The position numbers and the translations under genes were made by a program. A stretch of 64,000 nt of DNA from Gigantopelta aegis (taxonomy: Eukaryota; Mollusca; Gastropoda; Neomphalida; Peltospiridae). The notes under the pieces were generated by a model, which saw only the letters and a list, made by a program, of their open reading frames with translations, was not told where the DNA came from and did no database searches. The stretch is taken from contig NC_054704.1 of assembly GCF_016097555.1 (NCBI RefSeq), forward strand, positions 50,913,000 to 50,976,999, written 5' to 3'. Of the stretch, positions 1,197 through 61,138 are shown one piece after another (position 1 is the stretch's first letter; every line of letters begins with the position of its first letter).

Positions 1197-2933
1197 TGTG
1201 ACTTGTTATTGGACTTGAGTGATTGTCTGTATGCTTTGCATGTCATCCATGAAGTTGAAAGCTCGATTTATGTACACCACCTCGCTTTGGGAAAATGTGA
1301 CGTCATTATCAGATGCTGAATGACACTCATTTTTAGTTATGTTAATGTTGACATATTGATCTAGTCAATATATTTTACCTCATGCGACTATCTTTTGTTG
1401 TTTTTACACCAGAGTAATTTAAAACTATGGTAAAGTTTCTTTTGGCCTTCAGTTTATTTTGTTGCCCACATCATAATTATTATAATATTAATAATTATCT
1501 TATTATTTCAAAGTTGTTAAAATTTATAATTAATATTACCTGAAAATTGCATCAACAAAAAATTATATTCTGCCCAACCTACCTCTAGTCGGATCCCCTC
1601 GACATACTAGATATACGGAAACACGTAGGTAATAAATATAGATTGTACTAATTCAGATTCCCGTTGTTCGCTACTGTTATATGATAACCCAAGCTGCTAT
1701 AATATTCATAAGACATGCTGCAACTATGTGTTAGCTACAGAACATAAATGACAATATGCAAGGCATACAAAAAGTTAATATGATAATTTTATTCTATGTA
1801 AAACAGTAATCACTAAGGCTTTGCTTCACCCCCAAATACCCGGATGATCGGTAACTAGGCCGTGTGACGTCACGCGGGTTCCGAGAATTAGCTTACCAGA
1901 ATTGGAATGATTTAATGGTCATCTTATACAAAAGCATTTAATTAGACCTACAGATTGCCAATCAACTAAATTTATTAATGGAATAAAATTGTTTTAAAAA
2001 ACAGGCTATGAGTAACTGCATTACAGGTAGGTTTATTAAAATATGATATTTTATTACATAATGAAAATATATCTGTATTCTTATTGGTGGTCAAAAACCA
2101 GTCACATGACCTTCTGTAAATAATGATATTGCCCAGAGACGGTCCCACCGGTCCATCAAAAGTGATATTGCCCTGACCAATGAAAATAAAGATGAGACGA
2201 AATTCTATCCAATTAATAGTATGTAACGTAATGCAACGTCAACTGCTAATTCTAATGTAACCAAGTACAAACTTGTGTCAAAATGTTTTGCTGTCCTTCA
2301 ACAAAAAGATAACATCTTTAGTCATACTGAGTATAATGGTATTAATGTTTTGCATTTAGCTCCCTTTCTCTATGCATTTTAAGTCATTGTTGCACCTGTT
2401 GATGTTCATTCCAATCCAAGATAAAAATATGTAAAACTAATTAATATTTAACTGAAATTACTTTTCGTTTTAGTATCATTTGAGCCAAAAACAATGTTAG
2501 TGGATCATAATTTTTTTTTGTACTTTGTATGTTTATCATTCATACTAGCATGATCGAAAAAATAATCATGGTCAAATATTATAGTTTAGTTTAGTTCATA
2601 ATTTAATAAAAATGTATGTCTGCATTTTTTTTTGGAGGGGAGGGTGGAGGTTGGTGGAGGGGGCACATTAAGTATGTTTGTAGTGTAAAAATATGAAGTT
2701 ATTAAGTTATAAAATACTGGAAACATTTGGTTAAGCGAAAACACATTAGATGAAAAAAGAAATTTAGACTGATGTGTAATTTTAGTTGTTGAGCAAGCTC
2801 TATTAGCTGTAATCATCTAGTTCGAGGTGATCCGGTTACACAATTTGCCCAACATGTTCTTTTTCTTTTTCTATTTGCAAGATTTTTAGTTGTTTTAATT
2901 TGACATTCTTGGGTTGTTTTTAGTCTTCTTTAG
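1197..2933. other. AT-rich noncoding stretch
   Basis: No coding similarity or complete element recognised. There is a short purine-rich G tract at about 2635-2662. The stretch probably includes NUP133 intron sequence upstream of the first recognised exon, although no earlier exon could be found. Confidence 0.5.
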
Positions 2934-3028
2934 TTACAAGTCATTCGAAGATCGCTGAAATGAGTGTCAGTGATGACCGATACACACGTCTGAAAGCTGC
3001 TTTTATCAACTCTCTCGGTGGACACCTG
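2934..3028 (+). CDS. NUP133: NUP133 exon (first seen), partial gene
   Basis: Nup133 is a scaffold subunit of the Y-shaped (Nup107-160) complex of the nuclear pore. Translation from this exon ends RLKAAFINSLGGHL, matching the LLKAAF segment of vertebrate NUP133 that opens the part of the helical domain covered here (from memory of the human protein). The donor is CTG|GTACAT and leaves phase 0, which joins in frame to the next exon to give HL-QDAQ. The 5' edge is uncertain: acceptors at 2921-2923 (TAG after a T-run) and 2931-2933 (TAG) both leave the frame open. Exons for the N-terminal beta-propeller were not found and probably lie left of the window. Confidence 0.75.
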
Positions 3029-3268
3029 GTACATTAAGTAATTACTTCTATTATTTGCTTACTAACAATGTAAAACCATATGTTCTTGTAATCTCTTACT
3101 TGGGAATGCCATAAAGACATCCCACCACATGATAACAATTTCACTGAAACTATATTTTGATTTATTGCTTTGAATAAAAACTCTAAAACTAATCACTCTT
3201 CTAGTTTAATTTCTAATTTCCAAAAGAAACAGTGGTATGAGACATTACAACTGTACTTGATTTTTCAG

Positions 3269-3424
3269 CAAGATGCGCAGACTGCTGTTGAAACCTTTTT
3301 CCTTCACTGTGCAATGAAAGTGAGGCACACACTGACATGGATGAGCTGGTCGTGGCATTAAGTGTTGATCTTATTGATGACTGCCTGACATCTGACCCCA
3401 GATGCGTGGAAAGCTTACGACAAG
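3269..3424 (+). CDS. NUP133: NUP133 exon with internal frameshift
   Basis: The acceptor is TTTTTCAG|CAAGATG and the donor is CAAG|GTAACC (phase 1). The exon starts in frame as QDAQTAVE and then needs a one-base shift near 3291-3296 (GAAACC) to continue as LFPSLCNESEAHTDMDELVV and VALSVDLIDDCLTSDPR. The latter aligns well with the ISVDLMDDYPASDPRW region of vertebrate NUP133. Both halves match the family on either side of the break, so one A has apparently been lost from an A-run. It could be a true lesion or a homopolymer error in the assembly. Splice sites and downstream phase are intact. Confidence 0.85.
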
Positions 3425-4890
3425 GTAACCATGTTTAATTGAACACCACGTCACTTAAGTCATTTTCCATCACTAAAACAAGTAAGCTTGATATTTATAA
3501 ATGTTTTGACACATTAGTAGGATCCGATACCAAAACTTTGTATTTTTTTGGCAACAACAAATTGATTATGTACTGGTTTCTCTCTTAAAGTTGACTTAAC
3601 TTTTGTGTTCGTAATAACTGTGTCATATTCATCATTTGATTTTCGATTAAACCTTTGGATCATATAAAAATATTTTGTTTGGAAATTGTAAAGTACGTTC
3701 ACCTTTTGTACATGTGTTAATATTGCTGTGAACCTGCTGCGAGCTTAAAGGAGTAGTAGTATGTAAAATGAAGTTCTTTTTTGGAAAGATGCCTCTCCAA
3801 AGTTCCTATTTCAATATACGTATTTACAAATAGAAAAATTGCACGGCCAGAATTTGTAAAAAAAAACCCGGATTATTTCTACTTTATGGATATGGCCATC
3901 TTTATAAAAAGGAATTGTCTTCCCCATAAGCGGATGTAACGTGAAAGCTGGAATACGATTACTTGACCTTCAGTATACATAGCACGACAAAGAAGCCATT
4001 AAAAAAATTAATCAATTCCAAGACCAATTTCTTAAGCAACAGCGATCGTGGTGAATTTTTGAATAAAAACACTGTTTATGGGCAATATATACTGCAGTCA
4101 TTTCAGTTTAAGCCTGCATTTAACAAGAACAAACTACCGTGTAACAATGAGATGATAAAACCCAATATGTGGGTGTTGCAGATAATGGCTGTGTAGCAAA
4201 ACAACCGAGTAATGCAAGTTGGTGTTTATATGGCTACTATGCCTTTATATGGTCGCAAATAGAATGTGTTTGTTGTCTGATGTCACAGAACTAATGCACT
4301 GACCAGTCACTAGGTGACGTTCATTGTTAAAGATTACAAAATAGTGAAAGTATCAGTATTTTGATCGTTATTTAATTAAATATGCCTTTTTTAAATTATT
4401 GTTATGGAAAAATTGTGTTAAATACGTATATAGTAGATTAAAATATGTAGCAGTGAAAAAGCCTTAATTTAGCCTTCCTTTAAATAATGCAAAGTTGTAG
4501 TTATGCTCCAGTGATTGATTATAATCAAAAAGTTATCGGTTGGGCTCTATCGATGTGATGATTGTTTATAAATATTAATTATCAGTTGTTGTGGAAACTG
4601 TTAGCTGTACAGTTTAGTTGTTTCAACTAATGTTAATATGCTGGTGTTTGAGTTTGTTGTCTCAAAGTGTACACATAAAAAACCTCAGATACTGTATAGG
4701 TACCAAAGATAAAATTAGTTATTTGTTAGGTCTATTCCTTTTTAAGTTCATATAATTATAACCAATTGCATGATCAAAAGTTGATCGGTTGGTACAAACC
4801 ATTGATAACCTATGATCGATCATGAAGTTCTATTTGGTTCCCAACAAGTGCTACAAAGTTGTTTCGATTGATCATTTGTTGTCATTACAG
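3425..4890. other. NUP133 intron, no element recognised
   Basis: AT-rich intron sequence between two matched exons. Around 4500-4870 are several short palindromic ATCGATCAT-type motifs, but no complete element with clear ends was seen. Confidence 0.5.
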
Positions 4891-4994
4891 ATGCAGCTGT
4901 CAGTTCATCACTAATTATCCAGCAACAGTTGAGAGACAAGGACAAAGCACATGATTGTGTTTATTTTCATTACAAATGTCCATTTGGTGTTTTG
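4891..4994 (+). CDS. NUP133: NUP133 exon
   Basis: The acceptor is GTCATTACAG|ATGCAG and the donor TTTTG|GTAATA. The exon has 104 bases: two complete the codon split at the previous donor, followed by 34 codons. The translation SSSLIIQQQLRDKDKAHDC aligns with the SLIILHQLEDKMKAHSF helix of vertebrate NUP133. It ends CPFGVL, where the vertebrate protein has QVGLFGRL. The exon is undamaged and ends in phase 0, matching the next one. Confidence 0.88.
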
Positions 4995-5147
4995 GTAATA
5001 CCCCACATTAGTGCAGACTTAACAAACCAAACTTATTAATAACATTGATCATACAGCATTAGCAATGAGTGAAAATAAGTCGGCACAAAAACGGATAAAA
5101 AACCTACCCTGTCCCAGAGGTCGAGTTTCTTGAGAAAGCTAATCAAA

Positions 5148-5340
5148 TTAAGATGATGTTACTTCTCAACACTGGTGATGTCATCGGCTGTACTAGTTTG
5201 GTCTTACCAGTTATCAGTGTTGTAGAAGTTAAGATGATGTTACTTCTCCAACACTGGTGATGTTATCGGCTGTACTAGTTTGGTCTTATCAGTTATCAGT
5301 ATTGTAGAAGGTTACTTCTCTAACACTGGTGATGTCATTG
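5148..5340. repeat. 79-base tandem repeat, about 2.5 copies
   Basis: A unit beginning TTAAGATGATGTTACTTCTC and containing AACACTGGTGATGT and GGCTGTACTAGTTTGG is repeated, with the last copy shortened. It lies in an intron of NUP133. Confidence 0.85.
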
Positions 5341-5689
5341 GCTTTTCGTTAACTGTTTGATTATTGCCGCTTCTATCAATCACTCGGGAGGAATTCATCA
5401 GAGGATCCTGGAGATATCTCTTTGGTCATTCCCATTGGTTAAAGCAATACCAATACATCCAGTTCACAAAGCCAGGCACATTACAAGCGTGTTCGAATGT
5501 GTTGGCAATAGTTACATTAACTACTAATGACTTTTCAAGAATCCTCACCATTTATATTATGCCTACCAAATTTTACTTGTGCATTCTGTTGATAGTCGAG
5601 GAGGAATGGAGAATGTGTTGCTGTCGTGATTGGAAGTGGCTTCTTTAGATACAGGGCAAGCGTATAGCTATTTTCTTGCTTGTTGCACC

Positions 5690-5925
5690 TCAGGGGATGA
5701 ATTCTGTCAGTATGGTTTTCCCATCCCAACCATTGGCCCATGACTATAGTACATCAAAAGCCATGTTGTCCTGTCTTTAGGGAAGTGCATATAAAAGATC
5801 CTTTGCTGCTAATGGAAACATGTTACAGGTTTTTTTGTAAGACTGTGTCATAAATTACCACATTTTTGACATGATTAATTAATCAGTATGCTCTAATGGT
5901 GTTGTTAAACAAAACAAAAACCCCA
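5690..5925 (+). mobile_element. SINE fragment with GTTAAACAAAACAAA-type tail
   Basis: The segment contains GCATATAAAAGATCCTTTGC, the body shared by the local SINEs. It ends in AATTAATCAGTATGCTCTAATGG and GTTGTTAAACAAAACAAA. The copy at 62840-62998 has the same tail. The tRNA-like head is degraded. Confidence 0.7.
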
Positions 5926-6346
5926 CTTTACCTTTGGCTGGCTGTTGGGATGTTCAGATTTGGGGGCAAACTCTGCACTTGGTGAGAACTCATGAATTCA
6001 TGAAAATAGAAGAATAATTACTTTTCACTATTTTGGTAAATGTTTCGAGTCGTGTATATAATCAGTTTACAATGCTATATGATTTTTATACAGATTGTGT
6101 CTTGTTGTACATGAAATAGCCATGCTTATAGTTTAAAATATGCCGAGATGTTATTAAATATTCCTTTCCTTGTTATAGTCATTTCATAGTGAATTTCATT
6201 TATTGTCTTCCTATTGATTTTCTTACATACAACACACACTCATGGTTAAATAAAGATATTAAATAATCTAAACATGAAGCTTGCCAACAGGTAGCCTTGA
6301 ACTGATTATTAAGTTCTGTTTGACTAACAGTCTTGTTTGTTTCCAG

Positions 6347-6453
6347 CTCTGTGGTGTGGTCATGCGAGAGACGGTGATGTCTACCAGATTGTTCCTCTGT
6401 GAACATGCCGAGAAGCTACAGGCTGCGATTGCATTGCGAGAATTACACAGCGA
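6347..6453 (+). CDS. NUP133: NUP133 exon bordering the minisatellite
   Basis: The acceptor is TTTCCAG|CTCTGTGG in phase 0. The translation [20 protein letters not shown] matches the [20 protein letters not shown] block of vertebrate NUP133 almost residue for residue, which is the clearest identification in the window. The 3' end is ambiguous because the donor region is duplicated: CACAGCGA|GTGTTA (exon end 6453) and ACAGCGA|GTATGT (exon end 6467), 14 bases apart. The second, stronger-looking donor is also the start of the minisatellite unit. The family segment that should follow (about 75 residues, SDLVNTAI onward in vertebrates) was not found before the next exon at 12315. Confidence 0.9.
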
Positions 6454-6547
6454 GTGTTACACAGCGAGTATGTCGTTCTGTTGTAAACTGTCACATGAGG
6501 TAGTCGATTGTCACCAGGCAGCGAGTACGTCATTCTGTTGTAAACAG

Positions 6548-6938
6548 AAAGAAAGAAATGTTTTATTTAACGATGCACTCAACACATTTTTATTTACGGT
6601 TATATGGCGTCAGGCATATGGTTAAGGACCACACAGATTTTTAGAGGAAACCCGCTGTCGCCACTACATGGGCTACTCTTTCCGATTAGCAGCAAGGGAT
6701 CTTTTATTTGCGCTTCCCACAGGCAGGATAACACAAACCATGGCCTTTGTTGAACCAGTTATGGATTACTGGTCGGTGTAAGTGGTTTACACCTACCCAC
6801 TGAGCCTTGCGGAGCACTCACTCAGGGTTTGGAGTCAGTATCTGGATTAAAAATCCCATGCCTTGACTGGGATCCGAACCCAGTACCTACCAGCCTGTAG
6901 ACCGATGGCCTAACCACGACGCCACTGAGGCCAGGCTA
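6548..6938 (-). mobile_element. tRNA-derived SINE, GGCCTCGGTGGCGTCG head
   Basis: In reverse it begins at the tRNA-like head (TGGCGTCGTGGTTAGGCCAT, then GGTTCGGATCCCAG as box B). It runs through the TAAAAGATCCCTTGCTGC body and ends CGTTAAATAAAACATTTC. It is flanked by the duplication TTGTAAACAG (6538-6547 and 6939-6948), so it inserted into a minisatellite unit. Full-length relatives are at 11638, 29842, 42909 and 52349. Confidence 0.92.
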
Positions 6939-31504: not shown

Positions 31505-34500
31505 AACACCATCATAAACATGTAAGACAGAGACAAGATACACAAACATGTAAGACAGAGACAAGATACGCCATCATGTAAGACAGAGACAAGATACACC
31601 ATCATAAACATGTAAGACAGAGACAAGATACACCATCATAAACATGTAAGACAGAGACAAGATACGCCATCATAAACATGTAAGACAGAGACAAGATACG
31701 CCATCATAAACATGTAAGACAGAGACAAGATACACCATCATAAACATGTAAGACAGAGACAAGATACACCATCATAAACATGTAAGACAGAGACAAGATA
31801 CACCATCATAAACATGTAAGACAGAGACAAGATACACTATCATAAACATGTAAGACAGAGACAAGATACACCATCATAAACATGTAAGACAGACAAAATA
31901 CACCATCATAAACATGTAAGACAGAGACAAGATACACCATCATAAACATGTAAGACAGAGACAAGATACACCATCATAAACATGTAAGACAGAGACAAGA
32001 TACACCATCATAAACATGTAAGACAGAGACAAGATACGCCATCATAAACATGTAAGACAGAGACAAGATACACCATCATAAACATGTAAGACAGAGACAA
32101 GATACACTATCATAAACATGTAAGACAGAGACAAGATACACACCATCATAAACATGTAAGACAGACAAAATACACCATCATAAACATGTAAGACAGAGAC
32201 AAGATACGCCATCATAAACATGCAAGACAGAGACAAGATACACCATCATAAACATGTAAGACAGAGACAAGATACACCATCATAAACATGTAAGACAGAG
32301 ACAAGATACACCATCATACACCATCAAAACATGTAAGACAGAGACAAGATACACCATCATAAACATGTAAGACAGAGACAAGATACACCATCATAAACAT
32401 GCAAGACAGAGACAAGATACACCATCATAAACATGTAAGACAGAGACAAGATACACCATCATAAACATGTAAGACAGAGACAAGATACACCATCATAAAC
32501 ATGTAAGACAGAGACAAGATACACCATCATAAACATGTAAGACAGAGACAAGATACACCATCATAAACATGTAAGACAGAGACAAGATACACCATCATAA
32601 ACATGTAAGACAGAGACAAGATACACCATCATAAACATGTAAGACAGAGACAAGATACACTATCATAAACATGTAAGACAGAGACAAGATACACCATCAT
32701 AAACATGTAACATGTAAGACAGAGACAAGATACACCATCATAAACATGTAAGACAGAGACAAGATACACCATCATAAACATGCAAGACAGAGACAAGATA
32801 CACCATCATAAACATGTAAGACAGAGACAAGATACACTATCATAAACATGTAAGACAGAGACAAGATACACCATCATAAACATGTAAGACAGAGACAAGA
32901 TACACCATCATAAACATGTAAGACAGAGACATCATAAACATACAGAGACAAGATACACCATCATAAACATGTAAGACAGAGACAAGATACATCATATCAT
33001 AAACATGTAAGACAGAGACAAGATACATGTAAGACCATCATAAACATGTAAGACAGAGACAAGATACACCATCATAAACATGCAAGACAGAGACAAGATA
33101 CACCATCATAAACATGCAAGACAGAGACAAGATACACCATCATAAACATGTAAGACAGAGACAAGATACACAAACATGTAAGACAGAGACAAGATACACC
33201 ATCATAAACATGTAAGACAGAGACAAGATACACCATCATAAACATGCAAGACAGAGACAAGATACACCATCATAAACATGTAAGACAGAGAAGACAGAGA
33301 CAAGATACACCATCATAAACATGCAAGACAGAGACAAGATACACCATCATAAACATGCAAGACAGAGACAAGATACACCATCATAAACATGCAAGACAGA
33401 GACAAGATACACCATCATAAACATGTAAGACAGAGAAGACAGAGACAAGATACACCATCATAAACATGTAAGACAGAGACAAGATACACCATCATAAACA
33501 TGTAAGACAGAGACAAGATACACTATCATAAACATGTAAGACAGAGACAAGATACACCATCATAAACATGTAAGACAGAGATACACCATCATAAACATGA
33601 TACACCATCATAAACATGTAAGACAGAGAAGACAGAGACAAGATACACCATCATAAACATGTAAGACAGAGACAAGATACACAAACATGTAAGACAGAGA
33701 CAAGATACACCATCATAAACATGCAAGACAGAGACAAGATACACCATCATAAACATGCAAGACAGAGACAAGATACACCATCATAAACATGTAAGACAGA
33801 GACAAGATACACCATCATAAACATGTAAGACAGAGACAAGATACACCATCATAAACATGTAAGACAGAGACAATACAAACATGTAAGACAGAGACAAGAT
33901 ACACCATCATAAACATGCAAGACAGAGACAAGATACACCATCATAAACATGTAAGACAGAGACAAGATACACCATCATAAACATGCAAGACAGAGACAAG
34001 ATACACCATCATAAACATGTAAGACAGAGACAAGATACACCATCATAAACATGTAAGACAGAGAAAATACACCATCATAAACATGTAAGACAGAGACAAG
34101 ATACACCATCATAAACATGTAAGACAGACACAAGATACACCATCATAAACATGTAAGACAGAGACAAGATACACCATCATAAACATGTAAGACAGAGACA
34201 AGATACACCATCATAAACATGTAAGACAGAGACAAGATACATAAACATGTAAGACAGAGACAAGATACACTATCATAAACATGTAAGACAGAGACAAGAT
34301 ACACCATCATAAACATGTAAGACAGAGACAAGATACACCATCATAAACATGTAAGACAGAGACAAGATACACCATCATAAACATGTAAGACAGAGACAAG
34401 ATACGCCATCATAAACATGTAAGACAGAGACAAGATACGCCATCATAAACATGTAAGACAGAGACAAGATACGCCATCATAAACATGTAAGACAGAGACA

Positions 34501-36190
34501 AGATACACCATCATAAACATGTAAGACAGAGACAAGATACACTATCATAAACATGTAAGACAGAGACAAGATACACTATCATAAACATGTAAGACAGAGA
34601 CAAGATACACTATCATAAACATGTAAGACAGACAAGATACACCATCATAAACATGTAAGACAGACAAGATACACCATCATAAACATGTAAGACAGAGACA
34701 AGATACACCATCATAAACATGTAAGACAGAGACAAGATACACACCATCATAAACATGTAAGACAGAGACAAGATACACCATCATAAACATGTAAGACAGA
34801 GACAAGATACACCATCATAAACATGTAAGACAGAGACAAGATACGCCATCATAAACATGTAAGACAGAGACAAGATACACCATCATAAACATGTAAGACA
34901 GAGACAAGATACACCATCATAAACATGCAAGACAGAGACAAGATACACCATCATAAACATGTAAGACAGAGACAAGATACACCATCATAAACATGTAAGA
35001 CAGAGACAAGATACACCATCATAAACATGTAAGACAGACAAGATACACCATCATAAACATGTAAGACAGAGACAAGATACACCATCATAAACATGTAAGA
35101 CAGACAAAATACACCATCATAAACATGTAAGACAGAGACAAGATACACCATCATAAACATGTAAGACAGAGACAAGATACGCCATCATAAACATGTAAGA
35201 CAGAGACAAGATACACCATCATAAACATGTAAGACAGAGACAAGATACACCATCATAAACATGTAAGACAGAGACAAGATACGCCATCATAAACATGTAA
35301 GACAGAGACAAGATACACTATCATAAACATGTAAGACAGACAAGATACACCATCATAAACATGTAAGACAGACAAGATACACCATCATAAACATGTAAGA
35401 CAGAGACAAGATACACCATCATAAACATGTAAGACAGACAAAATACACCATCATAAACATGTAAGACAGACAAGATACACCATCATAAACATGTAAGACA
35501 GAGACAAGATACACCATCATAAACATGTAAGACAGACAAAATACACCATCATAAACATGTAAGACAGACAAGATACACTATCATAAACATGTAAGACAGA
35601 GACAAGATACGCCATCATAAACATGCAAGACAGAGACAAAATACACCATCATAAACATGTAAGACAGAGACAAGATACACCATCATAAACATGTAAGACA
35701 GAGACAAGATACGCCATCATAAACATGTAAGACACACAACATACACCATCATAAACATGTAAGACAGAGACAAGATACACCATCATAAACATGCAAGACA
35801 GAGACAAGATACACCATGATAAACATGTAAGACAGACAAGATACACCATCATAAACATGCAAGACAGAGACAAGATACACCATCATAAACATGTAAGACA
35901 GACCAAATACACCATCATAAACATGCAAGACAGAGACAAGATACACCATCATAAACATGTAAGACAGAGACAAGATACGCCATCATAAACATGTAAGACA
36001 GACAAAATACACCATCATAAACATGTAAGACAGACAAGATACACTATCATAAACATGTAAGACAGAGACAAGATACGCCATCATAAACATGTATGACAGA
36101 GACAAGATACACACCATCATAAACATGTAAGACACACAACATACACCATCATAAACATGTAAGACAGAGACAAGATACACTATCATAAAC
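31505..36190. repeat. 34-base minisatellite, about 135-140 copies
   Basis: The unit is ACACCATCATAAACATGTAA then GACAGAGACAAGAT. Variants include GTAAGACAGACAAGAT (minus GA), TATCAT for CCATCAT, ATACGCC for ATACACC, and GCAAGAC for GTAAGAC. A few units are truncated or partly duplicated. Because 34 is not a multiple of 3, every strand-frame cycles through a 102-base repeat, producing spurious 60-75-residue open frames (VYLVSVLHVYDG). The array starts and ends abruptly. Copies are so uniform that the true length is probably uncertain. Confidence 0.97.
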
Positions 36191-54570: not shown

Positions 54571-55519
54571 TTAGCCCGAGTACTCTGACTGTAAGAGAGC
54601 TAGACGGACATTTGGACATAAACACGCTCTCATTACAGTCAGAGACCAACCTATGTCTTTTTTTGGCAATTCCTGACTACCAAACGGTAGGCAACGAGTC
54701 CCGCTCTAATTCCACAACAATCCTATATTTGACGTCAAATACCTTTACATCAATCATTTTCGAGTTAAGTGATAAAAAAAAATCCACATATTAATCACTA
54801 ATACACATACTACAGAAAGAAACCCGACAGCACCCACATTCAGCTACGCTTCGTGACACTCCGTCGCAACAATTACAAAGCTCGGCGATCTATTTCGAGA
54901 CTGGGCGATTCCGCCTTGTGCAGCAGTTACAGGGGTCGTCTCATAAGAGGAGGCAGTACGTAGCACATACTTTTGCCGTATCTTGTCGATAACACCCCAA
55001 ATGTATCCTTCAAATTCAAAATGGAATCAATAATGTGTAATTGTTTTGGTTTAATGACGTAATGAAATCCAAATTCATCCAAAACGGCATTAGCCAACTC
55101 TTCCATGTTGTAACTTCGCTTGATATGAGACGGCCCCTGTAACTGCTGCACAAGGCGGAATCGCCCAGTGCGCGATCACGTGGTCTACGTCTCGAAATAG
55201 ATCGCCGAGCTTTGCAATTGTTGCGACGGAGTGTCACGAAGCGTAGCTGAATGTGGGTGCTGTCGGGTTTCTTTCTGTAGTAAGTGTATTAGTGATTAAT
55301 ATGTGGATTTTTTTGTATCACTTAACTCGAAAATGATTGATGTAAAGGTATTTGACGTCAAACATAGGATTGTTGTGGTATTAGAGCGGGACTCGTTGCC
55401 TACCGTCTGGTAGTCAGGAATTGCCAAAAAAAGACATAGGTTGGTCTCTGACTGTAATGAGAGCGTGTTTATGTCCAAATGTCCGTCTAGCTCTCTTACA
55501 GTCAGAGTACTCGGGCTAA
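54571..55519. mobile_element. 949-base element with ~380-base TIRs and captured helicase piece
   Basis: The left arm (54571-54945) begins TTAGCCCGAGTACTCTGACT and is inverted as the right arm (55124-55519), about 95% identical by eye. The right arm has 21 extra bases (within CGCGATCACGTGGTCTACG). GCGGGCA is duplicated at 54564-54570 and 55520-55526, a 7-base target-site duplication. Only 178 bases lie between the arms, and these encode part of a RecQ-like helicase. There is no transposase. The structure is that of a Pack-type or foldback non-autonomous DNA transposon. TSD length alone does not settle the superfamily. Confidence 0.9.
54927..55151 (-). pseudogene. RecQ-like helicase N-terminal fragment
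   Basis: Minus strand: LDEFGFHYVIKPKQLHIIDS, then VLSTRYGKSMCYVLPPLM. This is the Q-motif-like KP.Q...I region followed by the Walker A (motif I) of a RecQ-family DNA helicase (typically PTGYGKSLCYQLP). The first Gly of the P-loop is Arg here. Only about 60 residues exist, both edges run into the inverted repeats and no helicase core motifs II-VI are present. It is therefore a fragment carried by the element, not a working helicase. Helicase identity is likely from the motif pair. Confidence 0.7.
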
Positions 55520-55526
55520 GCGGGCA

Positions 55527-57481
55527 TATGTCTGGAGAAGTTGACATTGTTTTATAGAGTAAATTGACATTTAAAATATCGGTGAAAGTGCAGAAACATG
55601 AACTTTTGATGCATTACTAGTGACAGCAAAAGTGTAAGTAATTTGATTGTAATATTATGTTTACAGACACGTGCTATAGTTTTGAATGAATTAATATAAA
55701 AATGTAAAACATGTTTAATGAGCAACATAAATTTAAGTCAGAATAGCAAGAGTCATGTAATCACAGTAAATTGCTGAATAATGATGTATCCTGGACCTAT
55801 TGAATTATGTTCTATTACCAGGAAATCGCAACTGCGACAACCAGATAAATTTAACAACATCATTGTTTACCTTGTCCAGTACAAAGTAAAATAATAATAA
55901 TATTTGTGTAATTACACAGTTTACCTTTGTTGTCAATGAATGTAAAATTCCAACCAGGAAGTGTATGTTAGTAATTTTTTTAACACTATTGAAATCCGTC
56001 CCATGTGAACGTCACAAACGTGGAATGTATGCCAGTATGGAAGACCATATCCGTCACCAAATTGAGGAAACAAGAACACAACAGATTGTCAAGGAAGCAA
56101 ATGTAAATTAATTATGAATATATCTACACGATTTTAATCAATTGATGGACATTGGTTGTCGACCAGCCCCACTGTGTTCGAGATTAGAAAGTTCACCTTG
56201 CTTTTTTGTTCTTTAGAGTTTGTTTTAGATTGGATTTTTTTAGATGCTTTGTAAACAATCATGCCACTCTTCACGGCTTTCCAAGTAGTCAAATGTTTTT
56301 TATGAATATAGGAAAATGGTTTTCTTGTGCTAACAACTTTTATAGGTGGCGAAAAAAGGAAGAAAAATCGACTAATGTTTCTCGATAACAATTGTGGATC
56401 TGACACAGCCTTCCATACATCACCTCCCACTATAAGAGTGTCAGTCATGTGACTTTTAACTAAATATAGACAAAACTAATGTAGACTACAGTCATTACCG
56501 ATCTGTCAAGTCTAGTCTCTTTGTGTATACAGGTTTTAATCTATTATAACCTTTGCATATGGTTTCTGTATGCAATAATAGAATTACCGCTAATGTACAA
56601 GGGACAAACACACTTTAAAAACTCTTTCCACCCTCATTTTCCATTTTGATCGATCAAGGCTTGGTTAGTTGATACATATGCAGTATAATTAAAGTTCGTG
56701 CTTGCGCAGTGTGATTAGAAAGAGTGCGGAAGTGAAATGGGACGGAGTTCGATAGTTTAGGATATATGATTAATTATGCTGGGTGGGATGTAGCCCAATC
56801 AGGCCTCTTAAAAATTGCGATCGTTTTGCGAATTTGGCGAGTGTCAGAGCTAGCCCTGCTAATAGTCCAGGTGTAGATGGAGGGGGTTGTCACCTGAAAA
56901 AGGGGAATTCTTGTGTAGCTGACACCTTCCTGTAGTATGATCTGTCTGTTGATCGCACCAACTTCAGGGCAAACTACTAGTTTGACCCCTTTCTTTGATG
57001 TTACCCGGCCTATTTTATGACTTTTGTTTCGCTATCGATGTGAAGGTTTATAGGCATTTACTCCATCTCCAAATAAGTTATGTTAATAACCTTGGTACCA
57101 TTGGATACCTAGATACAACAGCTTTCCAATGAATATAAACATTTAATCAACAATGCATGGTGTATATACGAATACACTCAAAAAGAAACCCTACCCCTCA
57201 ATTTTGTGGCATTTTTTGGGGGGGAAATCACATTTTGAATGATATAATTATAAAAGTTTGGAGTCTTTGTCTATAATTTTATGTTTATTACCAAGGCCAG
57301 TATGTTAGCAATAAAATGCATATATAGTGTGGAAATATCTTTGAATTTAGAACGCTATTAACATCAAAAACTAAAGTATACCCCTCATCTCAGAATTGGG
57401 TTATTTGGACACACTGTGAAGTATGTAGCCATATTTTTTCATTAAAACCAAAGCAAAGATTTGCAAATGTGGTCTCAGATA
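55527..57481. other. noncoding stretch
   Basis: AT-rich. Holds a SINE head scrap at about 56779-56800 (GGGTGGGATGTAGCCCAATC). No other gene or element with ends recognised; open frames near 56134-56448 have no recognisable motif. Confidence 0.5.
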
Positions 57482-57839
57482 CACTGCAGATATATAGCTG
57501 TCAAAACCATGGGAGGTTACACAATTTCAGACTGGGGGGTGGGTGGCAGGGGGCGGGGTGGTGGTTAGAGATAATTATTTTGGGAGGGGGCTAAACTACA
57601 CAAAAAACATTGACATATGGGTTTTAGAGGTGAGTCCCCATATACCACCCCAGAAAGGTGTCACAAAGGGACTAACACTGTTCTGTTTCAGCGATATGAA
57701 AAAATAAGTATAATTTTAGCTGCAAATGTTTCAGTGGCAAAAATTTGGCATTTGTAACTCAGTTCAGTTTTCGTTAAATCACTCATGGCTCAGTATGTTG
57801 ATTCAGATGTATTCATCATCATATGGGTAGGCCATTATA

Positions 57840-59475
57840 TCATCTTGTGATTCTTCTTTATCTAGTGCAGCATCATCAGAGTCTTCGCCTTCACAACAGA
57901 GAAGTGACATAATGTCATCCCGAAATAGTTTTTGTTCACTGAATAGACATGTCGTCTATCTAACCATACAACGTTGGGTTTGGAGCATCGAAATCGGCAA
58001 CAGACGATAATCTCCATATGTGGCACACATAGTTGGCTCTCTGGATGTGTAAGGCCAAGTTCTCCTTGTTGGGTGATAGCAGAGACAGGTCAACTATTTG
58101 TCCGTGTTTGTTGTATTTTTCCTAGAATATTTGCTGTCGTGGCGTGTTGACAATCTCGGTGCGCTTTCTGCCATATAACTTGCAAACAGTCTTCCAATAT
58201 GCTCAGTATTCTGTCATCCAAATTCCAGTCACTTTTAAGCTCAGCAAAAGCTTCAATGTACTTGGTATCCTTTTGTATGAGTATGAAGCACATCTTCTTT
58301 CCTTTTCGAAAAAAGGCAGACACATAATCATTTCCTGTGAATGAGTATAGTCCAATCAAAGCATTCTTGAAAGGCAACAGACAGTTCACAGCTGGATGTT
58401 GTATATATCTTTCTGCTGTTCCCATGACCATTATCCAGGTACATGCCATATTCAGCATCATGAATAACTGGTATGTCAATGTCTCCAGATGGTGATCGGA
58501 TAATGATGGGACCAGGAATGGTTGTGAGTGCATGTTGAACATGAAGAGATATTTTGAAATCGGCTTCTTCATGATCAGAAGAAAGGATCTTAACAACTTT
58601 TTAGCTTCATTTGTGACCAGGTAACAGTTGTCAGTCTTAGAGAAGTAAATAGTTTGATCACCCACTAATCGAGAACAATTATTTCCCCAAACCTGCATGA
58701 TCAGATCAATCAGTCATTCCTTGTTCGAGCCGTTTGAAAGGAAATGACTGAAGTTTCTTAGTACTTTCGTCTTTGAGCCTTTCATGAAGTACTGGTCACT
58801 ATATCCCTTGCGATTTCTTTCTGCCTCCTTGATTGACTTATCTCTGTATGTATCAGCAACGATGTCAATTCTTTTGTATCCAACAGGAAGAAGGTTGAAT
58901 ATCTTCATGGCCAATTGTTCAAACATCTTGCGTAATAGCCATCAGGTCAATGATATAAGCAGAGACAGATTCCTTTGCTGGCAGTTTGGCTGGGTCCAAA
59001 ACCTGGCAGTTCTCACTGAAGATATCTAGTAGCTTACTTTTTATTGTTGTTCTTCTTGTTCCATCTGGATGTGCCAAACACAGAGGAACAGGACCAAGAC
59101 AGTTGGACAAAACTTTGTAGGTATCCACCGGAGCATTGTACTTATTTGAAAGCACCACAAGTCTACCCAGAATGTCTCTTTCAGTTGTCAGTTCTTTAAC
59201 GCATAGATTCACCATTTTGTTTGCATCCTTGAATGTTCAAATAGGTGCTGTTGCAATTGGCATGAAGGACTTGGTTTTGGTTTCTTCTAACCTATCTTTG
59301 GCAAAGTTTCAGCTAGTCGTTTTCCTCGGTCCATCAAACTAGTGAGACTTTCTTCAATTTTGGTTGCAACAGGTGCTTCTAATCTTATCGACAAGCCATT
59401 GATCAAGCTGGGGAGCATACTTACAATCAAAGTGCAAAAGTTCCAGGCGGAATAAAACAGTTTGCTGGTAACCAA
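57840..59475 (-). pseudogene. FEN1/PIN-nuclease-like gene of an unnamed family, broken
   Basis: Minus strand, N to C: TVTSKLF/MVTSKLFYSAWNFCTL region (59475-59287); CLAHPDGTRRTTIKSKLLDI and AKESVSAYIIDLMAITQ (59215-58919); FEQLAMKIFNLLPVGYKRID and VADTYRDKSIKEAERNRKG (58926-58714). Next, in shifting frames, come SSDHEEADFKISLH and IIIRSPSGDIDIPVI, then NALIGLYSFTGNDYVSAFFR and GKKMCF (58698-58090), and finally YVCHIWRLSSVADFDAPNP and an acidic tail near 57850-58070. The acidic clusters (EEAD, SGDID) and the GNDY..FF.KGK block resemble the metal-binding core of XPG/FEN1/PIN nucleases. I recognise this protein as a recurrent uncharacterised family of cnidarian and mollusc genomes (recall). Frameshifts near 58450-58600 and 58920, plus stops, make this copy dead. 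Confidence 0.65.
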
Positions 59476-59690
59476 GGGGCCTATGAGAAATGGATGTTAA
59501 ATCGTCCACACCTCGCCAAATTTAAAGGTGCTCTGTTGGAAATAACTGGCCTTCAAAGTTCATCAGAGACATGCAGGCCATCTGAAATTAAGAAATTGGT
59601 AACAGCGGGTGCAAACAATACTGAAGTCCTGGTCAACGAATTTATCATTCCTTTCAGCACTGACCTTGACGTGTTACGGTTAATCAGTTA
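59400..59690 (+). pseudogene. second coding fragment in the TIR element
   Basis: The + strand reads GEHTYNQSAKVPGGIKQFAG, YEKWMLNRPHLAKFKGALLE and CRPSEIKKLVTAGANN, ending at a TAA at about 59691, just inside the right inverted repeat. The SAK..GGI......Y.KW.L pattern is one I associate with proteins that accompany the nuclease-like family, but here it is on the opposite strand and overlaps the minus-strand frame at 59400-59475. It may be a rearranged piece of the same gene. No function can be assigned. Confidence 0.4.
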
Positions 59691-60011
59691 AGTGCAACGC
59701 TCTGGTGGACATCGAAAAATTTTTAACTACTGTCTTGGCCCTGTTCCTTGCCACTGAAACATTTGCAGCTAAAATTATACTTATTTTTTCATGTCGCTGA
59801 AACAGAACAGTGTTAGTCCCTTTGTGACACCTTTCTGGGGTGGTATATGGGGACTCACCTCTAAAAGCTATATGTTAATGGGGTGGGTTTTTTTGTAGTT
59901 TAGCCCCCCTCCCAAAATAATTATCTCTAACCACCACCCCACTTCCCACCACCCACCCCAATCTGAAATTGTGTAACCTCCCCTGGTTTTGATAGCTATG
60001 TATCTGCAGTG

Positions 60012-61138
60012 TATTATACAATAAAAGCATATTTTTTCAGGCCATAATATATAAATTATGCTTTATACAATCAAATACAGGTTTGATACATGATACACCC
60101 ATTGCAGTTACATGATATGTTATGTTTGTAATTCTTGGTTAAATAGACCACCTAGCACAATGTAACGCGAGTAACCGAAATAGCTATTTTTTCCTCTCTA
60201 TCATTTATTTCTTGTTTCTAACAAACAACACTTGATACTTTCCTACACTAATACATACTACAGGTAGGGAAACCACAAATGTTTCACAATAGTGACATGA
60301 AACATGACACGGATACATCAAAAATTGTAATGCAAGTAACGGAAAAATATGTAATGCGAGCTGCCAACATTTTATTTTAATAGAACAATACCAGTGTGTG
60401 AATAATTATGCCAGCATACTTCTCACTAACACCAAGTTAGTTTTTGGTGCCACTTACTGGCTAATAAGCCTAAATATATATGTGCAATTCCAGGGTTACT
60501 CACGTTACATTTTTACCATACTAATTTGTTTTATTTGCTCAGGATTAATAATTATATACATTCAACACTTATTTTCTTTATTACATTTTATTAGTTAAAT
60601 AATCAATGTATATTATAAAAAAAAAAGAAGAGGAAATATGCTGATTAGTTTTCATACTTCGGTTACTCGCATTACGAAAAAAGAACACCATTAAAATCCA
60701 AGTCATTCTCCTCATACTGTAACAGCTATGATAAAAGTGGATATATTGGTGTATAGCTATGATGTTTAAGTATCTTTATGTGATAAGAGTTTTAAAAGTA
60801 TACAATTAATACATTTTTGGTTATCAAAATAGTCGGTTACTTGCATTACAATTTGGCCGCTATTTGGTAATGGCTGAAAAACGTAGATTTTAAAGAAAAA
60901 TAACAGTTTTTAAATGTCAAACTTTTATCGAAAGAAACATCAGAAAGTCACACAAATCAACTGGGTAAATATTACCCAAAATTTTAAACTTACAACAAGT
61001 TAAATAATGAATAAATTAATCATTTTGGGGAATTAATGTCAATTTTTAGAAAATTGAAATTTGAATTGTCTATTTTATATTTGAATATCCTGCCCCCTAC
61101 CCCCCACCCTCACCCCCAGTATTAGTGTTTTTAAGCTA
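60012..61138. other. noncoding, with recurring GTAAYGCGAGTAACCG motif
   Basis: No gene recognised. The motif GTAACGCGAGTAACCG or its inverse occurs, with variation, at 60161, 60326, 60350, 60493 (inverse), 60660 (inverse) and 60833 (inverse). Forward copies lie left and inverse copies right, like nested ends of a palindromic element. Confidence 0.6.

What the first reader, a model, noticed from the sequence alone, without database searches (positions are those of the whole stretch)
57482..60011. Candidate unclassified transposon: long TIRs, TA flanks and a FEN1/PIN-like protein
Seen: ~260-base inverted repeats whose similarity ends exactly at flanking TA, enclosing 2 kb that is almost wholly coding relic of one family with EEAD, SGDID and GNDYVSAFFRKGK blocks. 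Known: XPG/FEN1 and PIN nucleases use clusters of Asp/Glu like these. Inference: this widespread uncharacterised family may be the mobility protein, or a regular passenger, of a TA-targeting DNA element with no DDE transposase. That would be a new kind of element.
Basis: partly seen in the sequence, partly recalled or inferred. Interest (0 to 1): 0.78.

Follow-up and report, generated by a model that had tools for sequence, protein, structure and literature searches.

The report
Broken palindromic relic of known-type transposon
The flagged stretch is a damaged, mirror-image leftover of a DNA transposon whose intact relatives carry a transposase-like region and a FEN1/XPG-like nuclease in one protein, so it is most likely not a new kind of element.

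The parts
56863..60014 (.). Truncated palindromic element; complete left terminus, right terminus missing
   Evidence: TAGTCC begins at 56863; common stop of homology; no outer arm further right in the window
56863..57741 (+). Left arm, complete to its terminus
   Evidence: Conserved in other genomic copies
59748..60014 (-). Right arm, truncated at 60014; carries only the inner 267 bases
   Evidence: 91% to 57480-57741; the only one of 26 arm ends without the conserved outer flank
57806..59383 (-). Relic of the C-terminal, XPG/FEN1-like gene half (about residue 243 to the C-terminus, P0012 numbering), broken over several frames
   Evidence: tblastn matches 286-398, 405-660 and 662-743 of P0012; frames
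58553..58585 (-). EEAD block of the nuclease domain
   Evidence: invariant acids in relatives
59389..59689 (+). Second gene fragment, opposite orientation (about residues 140-241 of P0012)
   Evidence: same piece in native order in L030
59689..59747 (+). Further part of the second fragment, joined by an internal deletion; inverted 79% copy of 59084-59144
59383..59389 (.). Centre junction of the palindrome
   Evidence: Same junction region, with small insertions or deletions, in L010, L011, L012, L013 and L031

Best explanation
The stretch is a truncated copy (about 56863-60014) of a non-autonomous, palindromic (foldback-like) family derived from a cut-and-paste DNA transposon of AcademX-like type. 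The parent type encodes one long protein (about 1300-1550 aa in relatives): an N-terminal part, a region with an invariant D..D..E that is most likely the DDE transposase core, and a C-terminal XPG/FEN1-type nuclease domain; its ends read TAGTCCA and insertion duplicates 3 bp. SHOWN: the palindromic structure and shared centre junction; the shared termini; 3-bp duplications in most resolvable pairs; both regions in one protein in full-length relatives; the XPG/FEN1-like predicted fold. INFERRED: (a) one event copied the gene's 3' half and its end in inverted orientation and lost the D..D..E half; (b) the palindrome was then mobilised in trans by full-length relatives, since copies at different sites have different flanks yet share the centre; (c) in the window, deletions at 59689 and at 59747/59748 and loss of the sequence beyond 60014 left the apparent 'TIR-TA' element. 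The nuclease is thus one domain of the mobility protein, not a passenger or a stand-alone recombinase.
For: Outer arm conserved to about 56862 in other copies; outer-end search gives 41 matches, 31 starting at query base 1-4. Palindromes L010, L011, L015. Shared centre junction. Exact 3-bp duplications with TAGTCC as terminus: L010 ATA, L011 AGT, L027 TAA; longer relatives L029 TGA, L032 TAT, L033 CAG. Intact 1550-aa ORF in L029. D..D..E and H invariant in 68 of 68 full-length rows; nuclease acids in 67 or 68 of 68. XPG/FEN1-type fold. L030 keeps the D..D..E region in native order with the window's residues.
Against: L015 has no duplication and L020 has CAA against AAA. Other phases also allow repeats (L010 5 bp, L011 up to 9 bp inside a CAG-like repeat). 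The right termini of L012, L017 and L022 could not be read. The D..D..E region had no fold match and no Pfam family. No reference Academ sequence was available. No copy with these arms and a D..D..E half was found; L025 has two distant relics left of its only arm that I cannot place. Arms did not group by half in the tree.
Confidence: 0.82

Rival explanations
1. One reading: a TA-targeting element whose FEN1/PIN-like protein is itself the mobility enzyme, with no DDE transposase.
For: TA lies at both edges of the 91% repeat and the protein is nuclease-like. No D..D..E half was found between these arms: among 21 arm regions (L009-L028, L031) only L025 gave D..D..E-region matches, distant ones.
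Against: The TA is inside the arm; true ends lie about 620 bp further out; duplications are 3 bp and vary; relatives fuse the nuclease to a D..D..E region.
Confidence: 0.03
2. A non-autonomous element of another superfamily that captured fragments of a host nuclease gene (Pack-TIR style); the gene is only cargo.
For: Two gene fragments lie between arms in the window, with no transposase.
Against: The gene's 3' end lies next to the arm in the other copies. Three longer relatives carry the gene between ends sharing TAGTCCA. The gene family is itself mobile-like and abundant: 1779 first-look candidates, 35 scored.
Confidence: 0.1
3. The two opposed fragments are a rearrangement private to the window (for example two nested insertions), not a family structure.
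For: Two pieces in opposite orientation with 79% identity where they overlap.
Against: The same centre junction region occurs at five other loci, and those with readable ends have different flanks.
Confidence: 0.03

Closest known systems
AcademX lineage of Academ DNA transposons
   Same: Encodes a nuclease and makes 3 or 4 bp duplications (PMC10045372, passages); 3-bp duplications here. Curated bivalve Academ elements average 5565 bp (PMC10294476, passages); L029, L032 and L033 are 5887, 5890 and 6404 bp. That the nuclease is of XPG type is recalled.
   Different: The window family lacks the D..D..E half and is palindromic; no AcademX sequence was available for comparison.
AcademH lineage
   Same: Sister Academ lineage (PMC10045372).
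   Different: Encodes a helicase and makes 9 or 10 bp duplications; duplications here are 3 bp.
Galileo / Foldback-like elements of Drosophila
   Same: Long inverted repeats and copies with extended TIRs of varying structure (PMC4168063, abstract and passages).
   Different: P superfamily with 7-bp duplications (passage).
XPG/FEN1/EXO1/XRN nucleases
   Different: Sequence identity 9-15% in those alignments; fused to a D..D..E region; no activity tested.

Membership tests
AcademX | 3 or 4 bp target-site duplication | tested here: met
   Exact 3 bp in 3 of 5 resolvable pairs of the window family and 3 of 3 longer relatives; the window copy itself cannot be tested (right end lost)
AcademX | DDD/E transposase core with RNase H-like fold | tested here: inconclusive
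   D..D..E invariant in 68 of 68, region absent from the window copy; no fold match, region not covered
AcademX | Encodes a nuclease (XPG type, recalled) | tested here: met
   Predicted fold of relatives; relic motifs in the window
AcademX | Homology to reference AcademX proteins | not testable with these tools
   Kojima 2020 not held; no Repbase access
   True ends differ from the TA edges; 2-bp TA is not the duplication in any of the 7 pairs at the TAGTCC terminus
Foldback-type element | Long inverted repeats making up most of the element | tested here: met
   L010, L011, L015; window copy partly deleted
XPG/FEN1 nuclease family | Fold plus conserved acidic active site | tested here: met
   Fold. 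Acids: D1123 and D1164 in 67 of 68; E1261, E1262, D1264, D1287, D1289, D1345 in 68 of 68. The match to named FEN1 residues is by eye from recall
AcademH | 9 or 10 bp duplication | tested here: not met
   only L011 also fits 9 bp, inside a simple repeat

The most novel reading that the evidence does not exclude
Both active sites of this widespread protein are needed for transposition: the D..D..E core joins ends while the XPG/FEN1 domain cleaves or trims the 5' strand or flap. A failure of that second step during repair makes palindromic 3'-end derivatives, which then spread as a foldback family. That would be a naturally coupled DDE + flap-nuclease transposition system.
Probability: 0.2. Interest if true: 0.5.

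Novelty: new member of a known kind. Interest (0 to 1): 0.25.

Why it matters
It removes a false lead for a DDE-free TA element. It also gives a concrete anatomy for an abundant, mostly unnamed animal protein family: a D..D..E region plus an XPG/FEN1-type domain in one protein, TAGTCCA ends and 3-bp duplications. No Pfam family reached its cut-off in the proteins I scanned. The palindromic family records how such elements lose their transposase half yet, by inference, keep spreading.

Tried and rejected
TA-flanked element of 2.5 kb: rejected once other copies were read. Viral and bacterial collections: alignment A1 gave 60 pattern matches in viral contigs and 37 in genome contigs, none confirmed as a relative; tblastn of P0012 in phages found none. 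Pfam: no family above its cut-off for 4 window pieces, 9 long relatives or the L029 ORF; for the 34 aligned relatives only scattered one-member matches, E 0.013 or worse, cut-offs not shown. In the list, 4 of 120 proteins carry a precomputed Pfam accession (P0221, P0223, P0224, P0231); not followed up. PDB by sequence: nothing convincing. L027 looked like a copy with a native 5' end, but its middle holds another family member and nested repeats, so it was dropped as evidence for the 5' end. Tree of arms: no split of the two halves. Literature: searches; I saw no paper on palindromic Academ derivatives in those listings, which cover open-licence papers only and show at most 20 titles each.

Full report
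WHAT WAS REPORTED AND WHAT IS THERE. The reported arms exist: 57480-57741 against 59748-60014, 91% identity over 268 columns, E about 3e-105. The interior carries a frame-broken relic on the minus strand and a smaller + strand piece of the same protein family. The piece 59689-59748 is a 79% inverted copy of 59084-59144, so two copies of one gene region are present in opposite orientation.

THE LIMITS ARE WRONG. The host genome is held (1.149 Gb; the window is G000:C6:50913000-50976999). The arm 57480-57740 has 39 matches there, the window's own two included (a lower bound). I fetched 20 regions around these matches. In 25 of 26 arm ends examined by eye, the sequence outside the reported edge is conserved (in L015 left and L023 with a small deletion at the edge itself); the one exception is the window's own right end. 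With window 55001-57740 as query, 19 arm ends in 15 of 20 regions stop matching at 56849-56864; a twentieth (L020 right) ran to the edge of the fetched piece and was read later (L034). Eight other ends stop further in, at 56877 to 57195 (L013, L019, L024, L025, L026 and the right ends of L012, L017, L022); of these, L013 and L024 do carry the terminal motif. The terminus is TAGTCCAGGTGTAGATGGA, T at 56863; the motif without its T, with up to 4 substitutions, is found in 17 of the 20 regions. A search with 56862-57240 gave 41 matches (62 candidates, 40 scored), of which 31 begin at query base 1 to 4. Nothing of the outer arm exists further right in the window.

THE FAMILY IS PALINDROMIC. Mapping the window element onto the copies shows, for L010, arm plus gene in one orientation (423-2758) and then the same in the other (2693-5589): the same 3' end on both sides. 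L011, L012 and L015 are variants with deletions; L013 and L031 show the centre but only one arm in the fetched stretch. The centre (window 59383/59389) is the same junction region in L010, L011, L012, L013 and L031, with insertions or deletions of a few to about 16 bases, so these copies derive from one founder by inference. Within-element arm identity is 92.0-93.5% in the five elements tested (260 to 897 columns); between elements the mean is 90.8% (81.5-95.4, 248 pairs). The arms did not group by half in the tree, which neither supports nor excludes the founder model.

TARGET-SITE DUPLICATIONS. With TAGTCC as the first bases, exact 3-bp duplications flank L010 (ATA), L011 (AGT, inside a CAG-like repeat that also fits 9 bp) and L027 (TAA). 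L015 has none. L020 has CAA against AAA, read by eye (left flank, right flank). L012, L017 and L022 have no readable right terminus (in L022 that stretch reads N). The longer relatives L029, L032 and L033 have TGA, TAT and CAG. Shifting the assumed terminus by 1-3 bases gives other short matches in all seven pairs (for example 5 bp in L010); 3 bp at TAGTCC is the one length shared by six of those seven.

THE PROTEIN. The relic's relatives (79; 74, where only 7998 candidates were scored) include proteins of 1309-1345 aa in which the nuclease-like part is the C-terminal half (P0083, P0088). In the window's genome P0083 had 1779 first-look candidates, 35 scored, 39 matches, the best with an open frame of 1553 codons and no stop. 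That locus, L029, has a 1550-aa ORF between inverted ends 941-1077 / 6703-6829 beginning TAGTCCATGAGC. L032 and L033 have the same terminal TAGTCCATGAG; their frames are broken (open stretches of at most 597 and 1216 codons). The window arm has no match at E 0.01 in L029, L032 or L033, and one chance-like match of 46 bases in L030. A search with residues 440-760 of the L029 ORF gave 154 proteins; the 120 listed include entries from Branchiostoma, Mercenaria, corals, Nymphon and a fish, named only as uncharacterised, hypothetical, unnamed or Tesmin/TSO1-like CXC proteins where a name was shown. Of those 120, I aligned the 68 of 1400-1600 aa: D467, D631, H660 and E714 are identical in 68 of 68, the nuclease-domain acids D1123 and D1164 in 67 of 68 and six more in 68 of 68. 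These rows were picked by similarity to L029, so near-identity is partly expected; P0083 and P0088 share all of them although the best genomic match of P0083 is only 28% identical.

THE PARENTAL ORDER. L030 carries a relic of the D..D..E region (P0083 142-362 and 387-536; P0137 296-541 and 531-947) and then the residues that the window shows on its + strand (75% DNA identity), directly followed by the sequence with which the window's minus strand gene begins (61 bp at 75%; 85% to L010). Among the 21 fetched arm regions (L009-L028, L031), the D..D..E region was matched only in L025, at 23-26% identity, left of its only arm; I treat those as separate elements but cannot show it. The palindromes therefore lost the transposase half and, if they moved, moved with help from full-length relatives. 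That is inference.

FILING. AcademX is described as making 3 or 4 bp duplications and AcademH 9 or 10 bp, a difference tied to the nuclease and helicase that they encode (PMC10045372, passages). Curated bivalve Academ elements average 5565 bp (PMC10294476, passages). Architecture, size and duplication length fit AcademX; direct sequence comparison was impossible. The long-arm form has a precedent in Galileo, where some copies have extended TIRs (PMC4168063, abstract and passages). I therefore call it a new non-autonomous family of a known kind.

Noticed in passing
54612-54794 (+), 55296-55547 (-), 54927-55151 (-): Two nearly identical peptides on opposite strands flank a short helicase-like relic (Pfam DEAD, E 0.0024, 18 bits, below its cut-off of 26): perhaps another small inverted-repeat element.
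   Followed up: partly
32001-36000: Extreme AT skew (0.54-0.56) over 4 kb with negative GC skew, suggesting a strand-asymmetric repeat array.
   Followed up: no
60156-60855: A motif of about 20 bases (GTAACGCGAGTAACCGA-like) recurs several times in both orientations just right of the element.
   Followed up: no
L025:1038-3503 and 4836-5946: Two distant relics (about 22-32% identity) of the same D..D..E plus nuclease superfamily near one arm copy.
   Followed up: partly
L033:71-666 and 5890-6476: A longer relative has terminal inverted repeats of about 597 bp, 92% identical, while L029 and L032 have about 140 bp at 70%: TIR length varies widely within the superfamily.
   Followed up: partly
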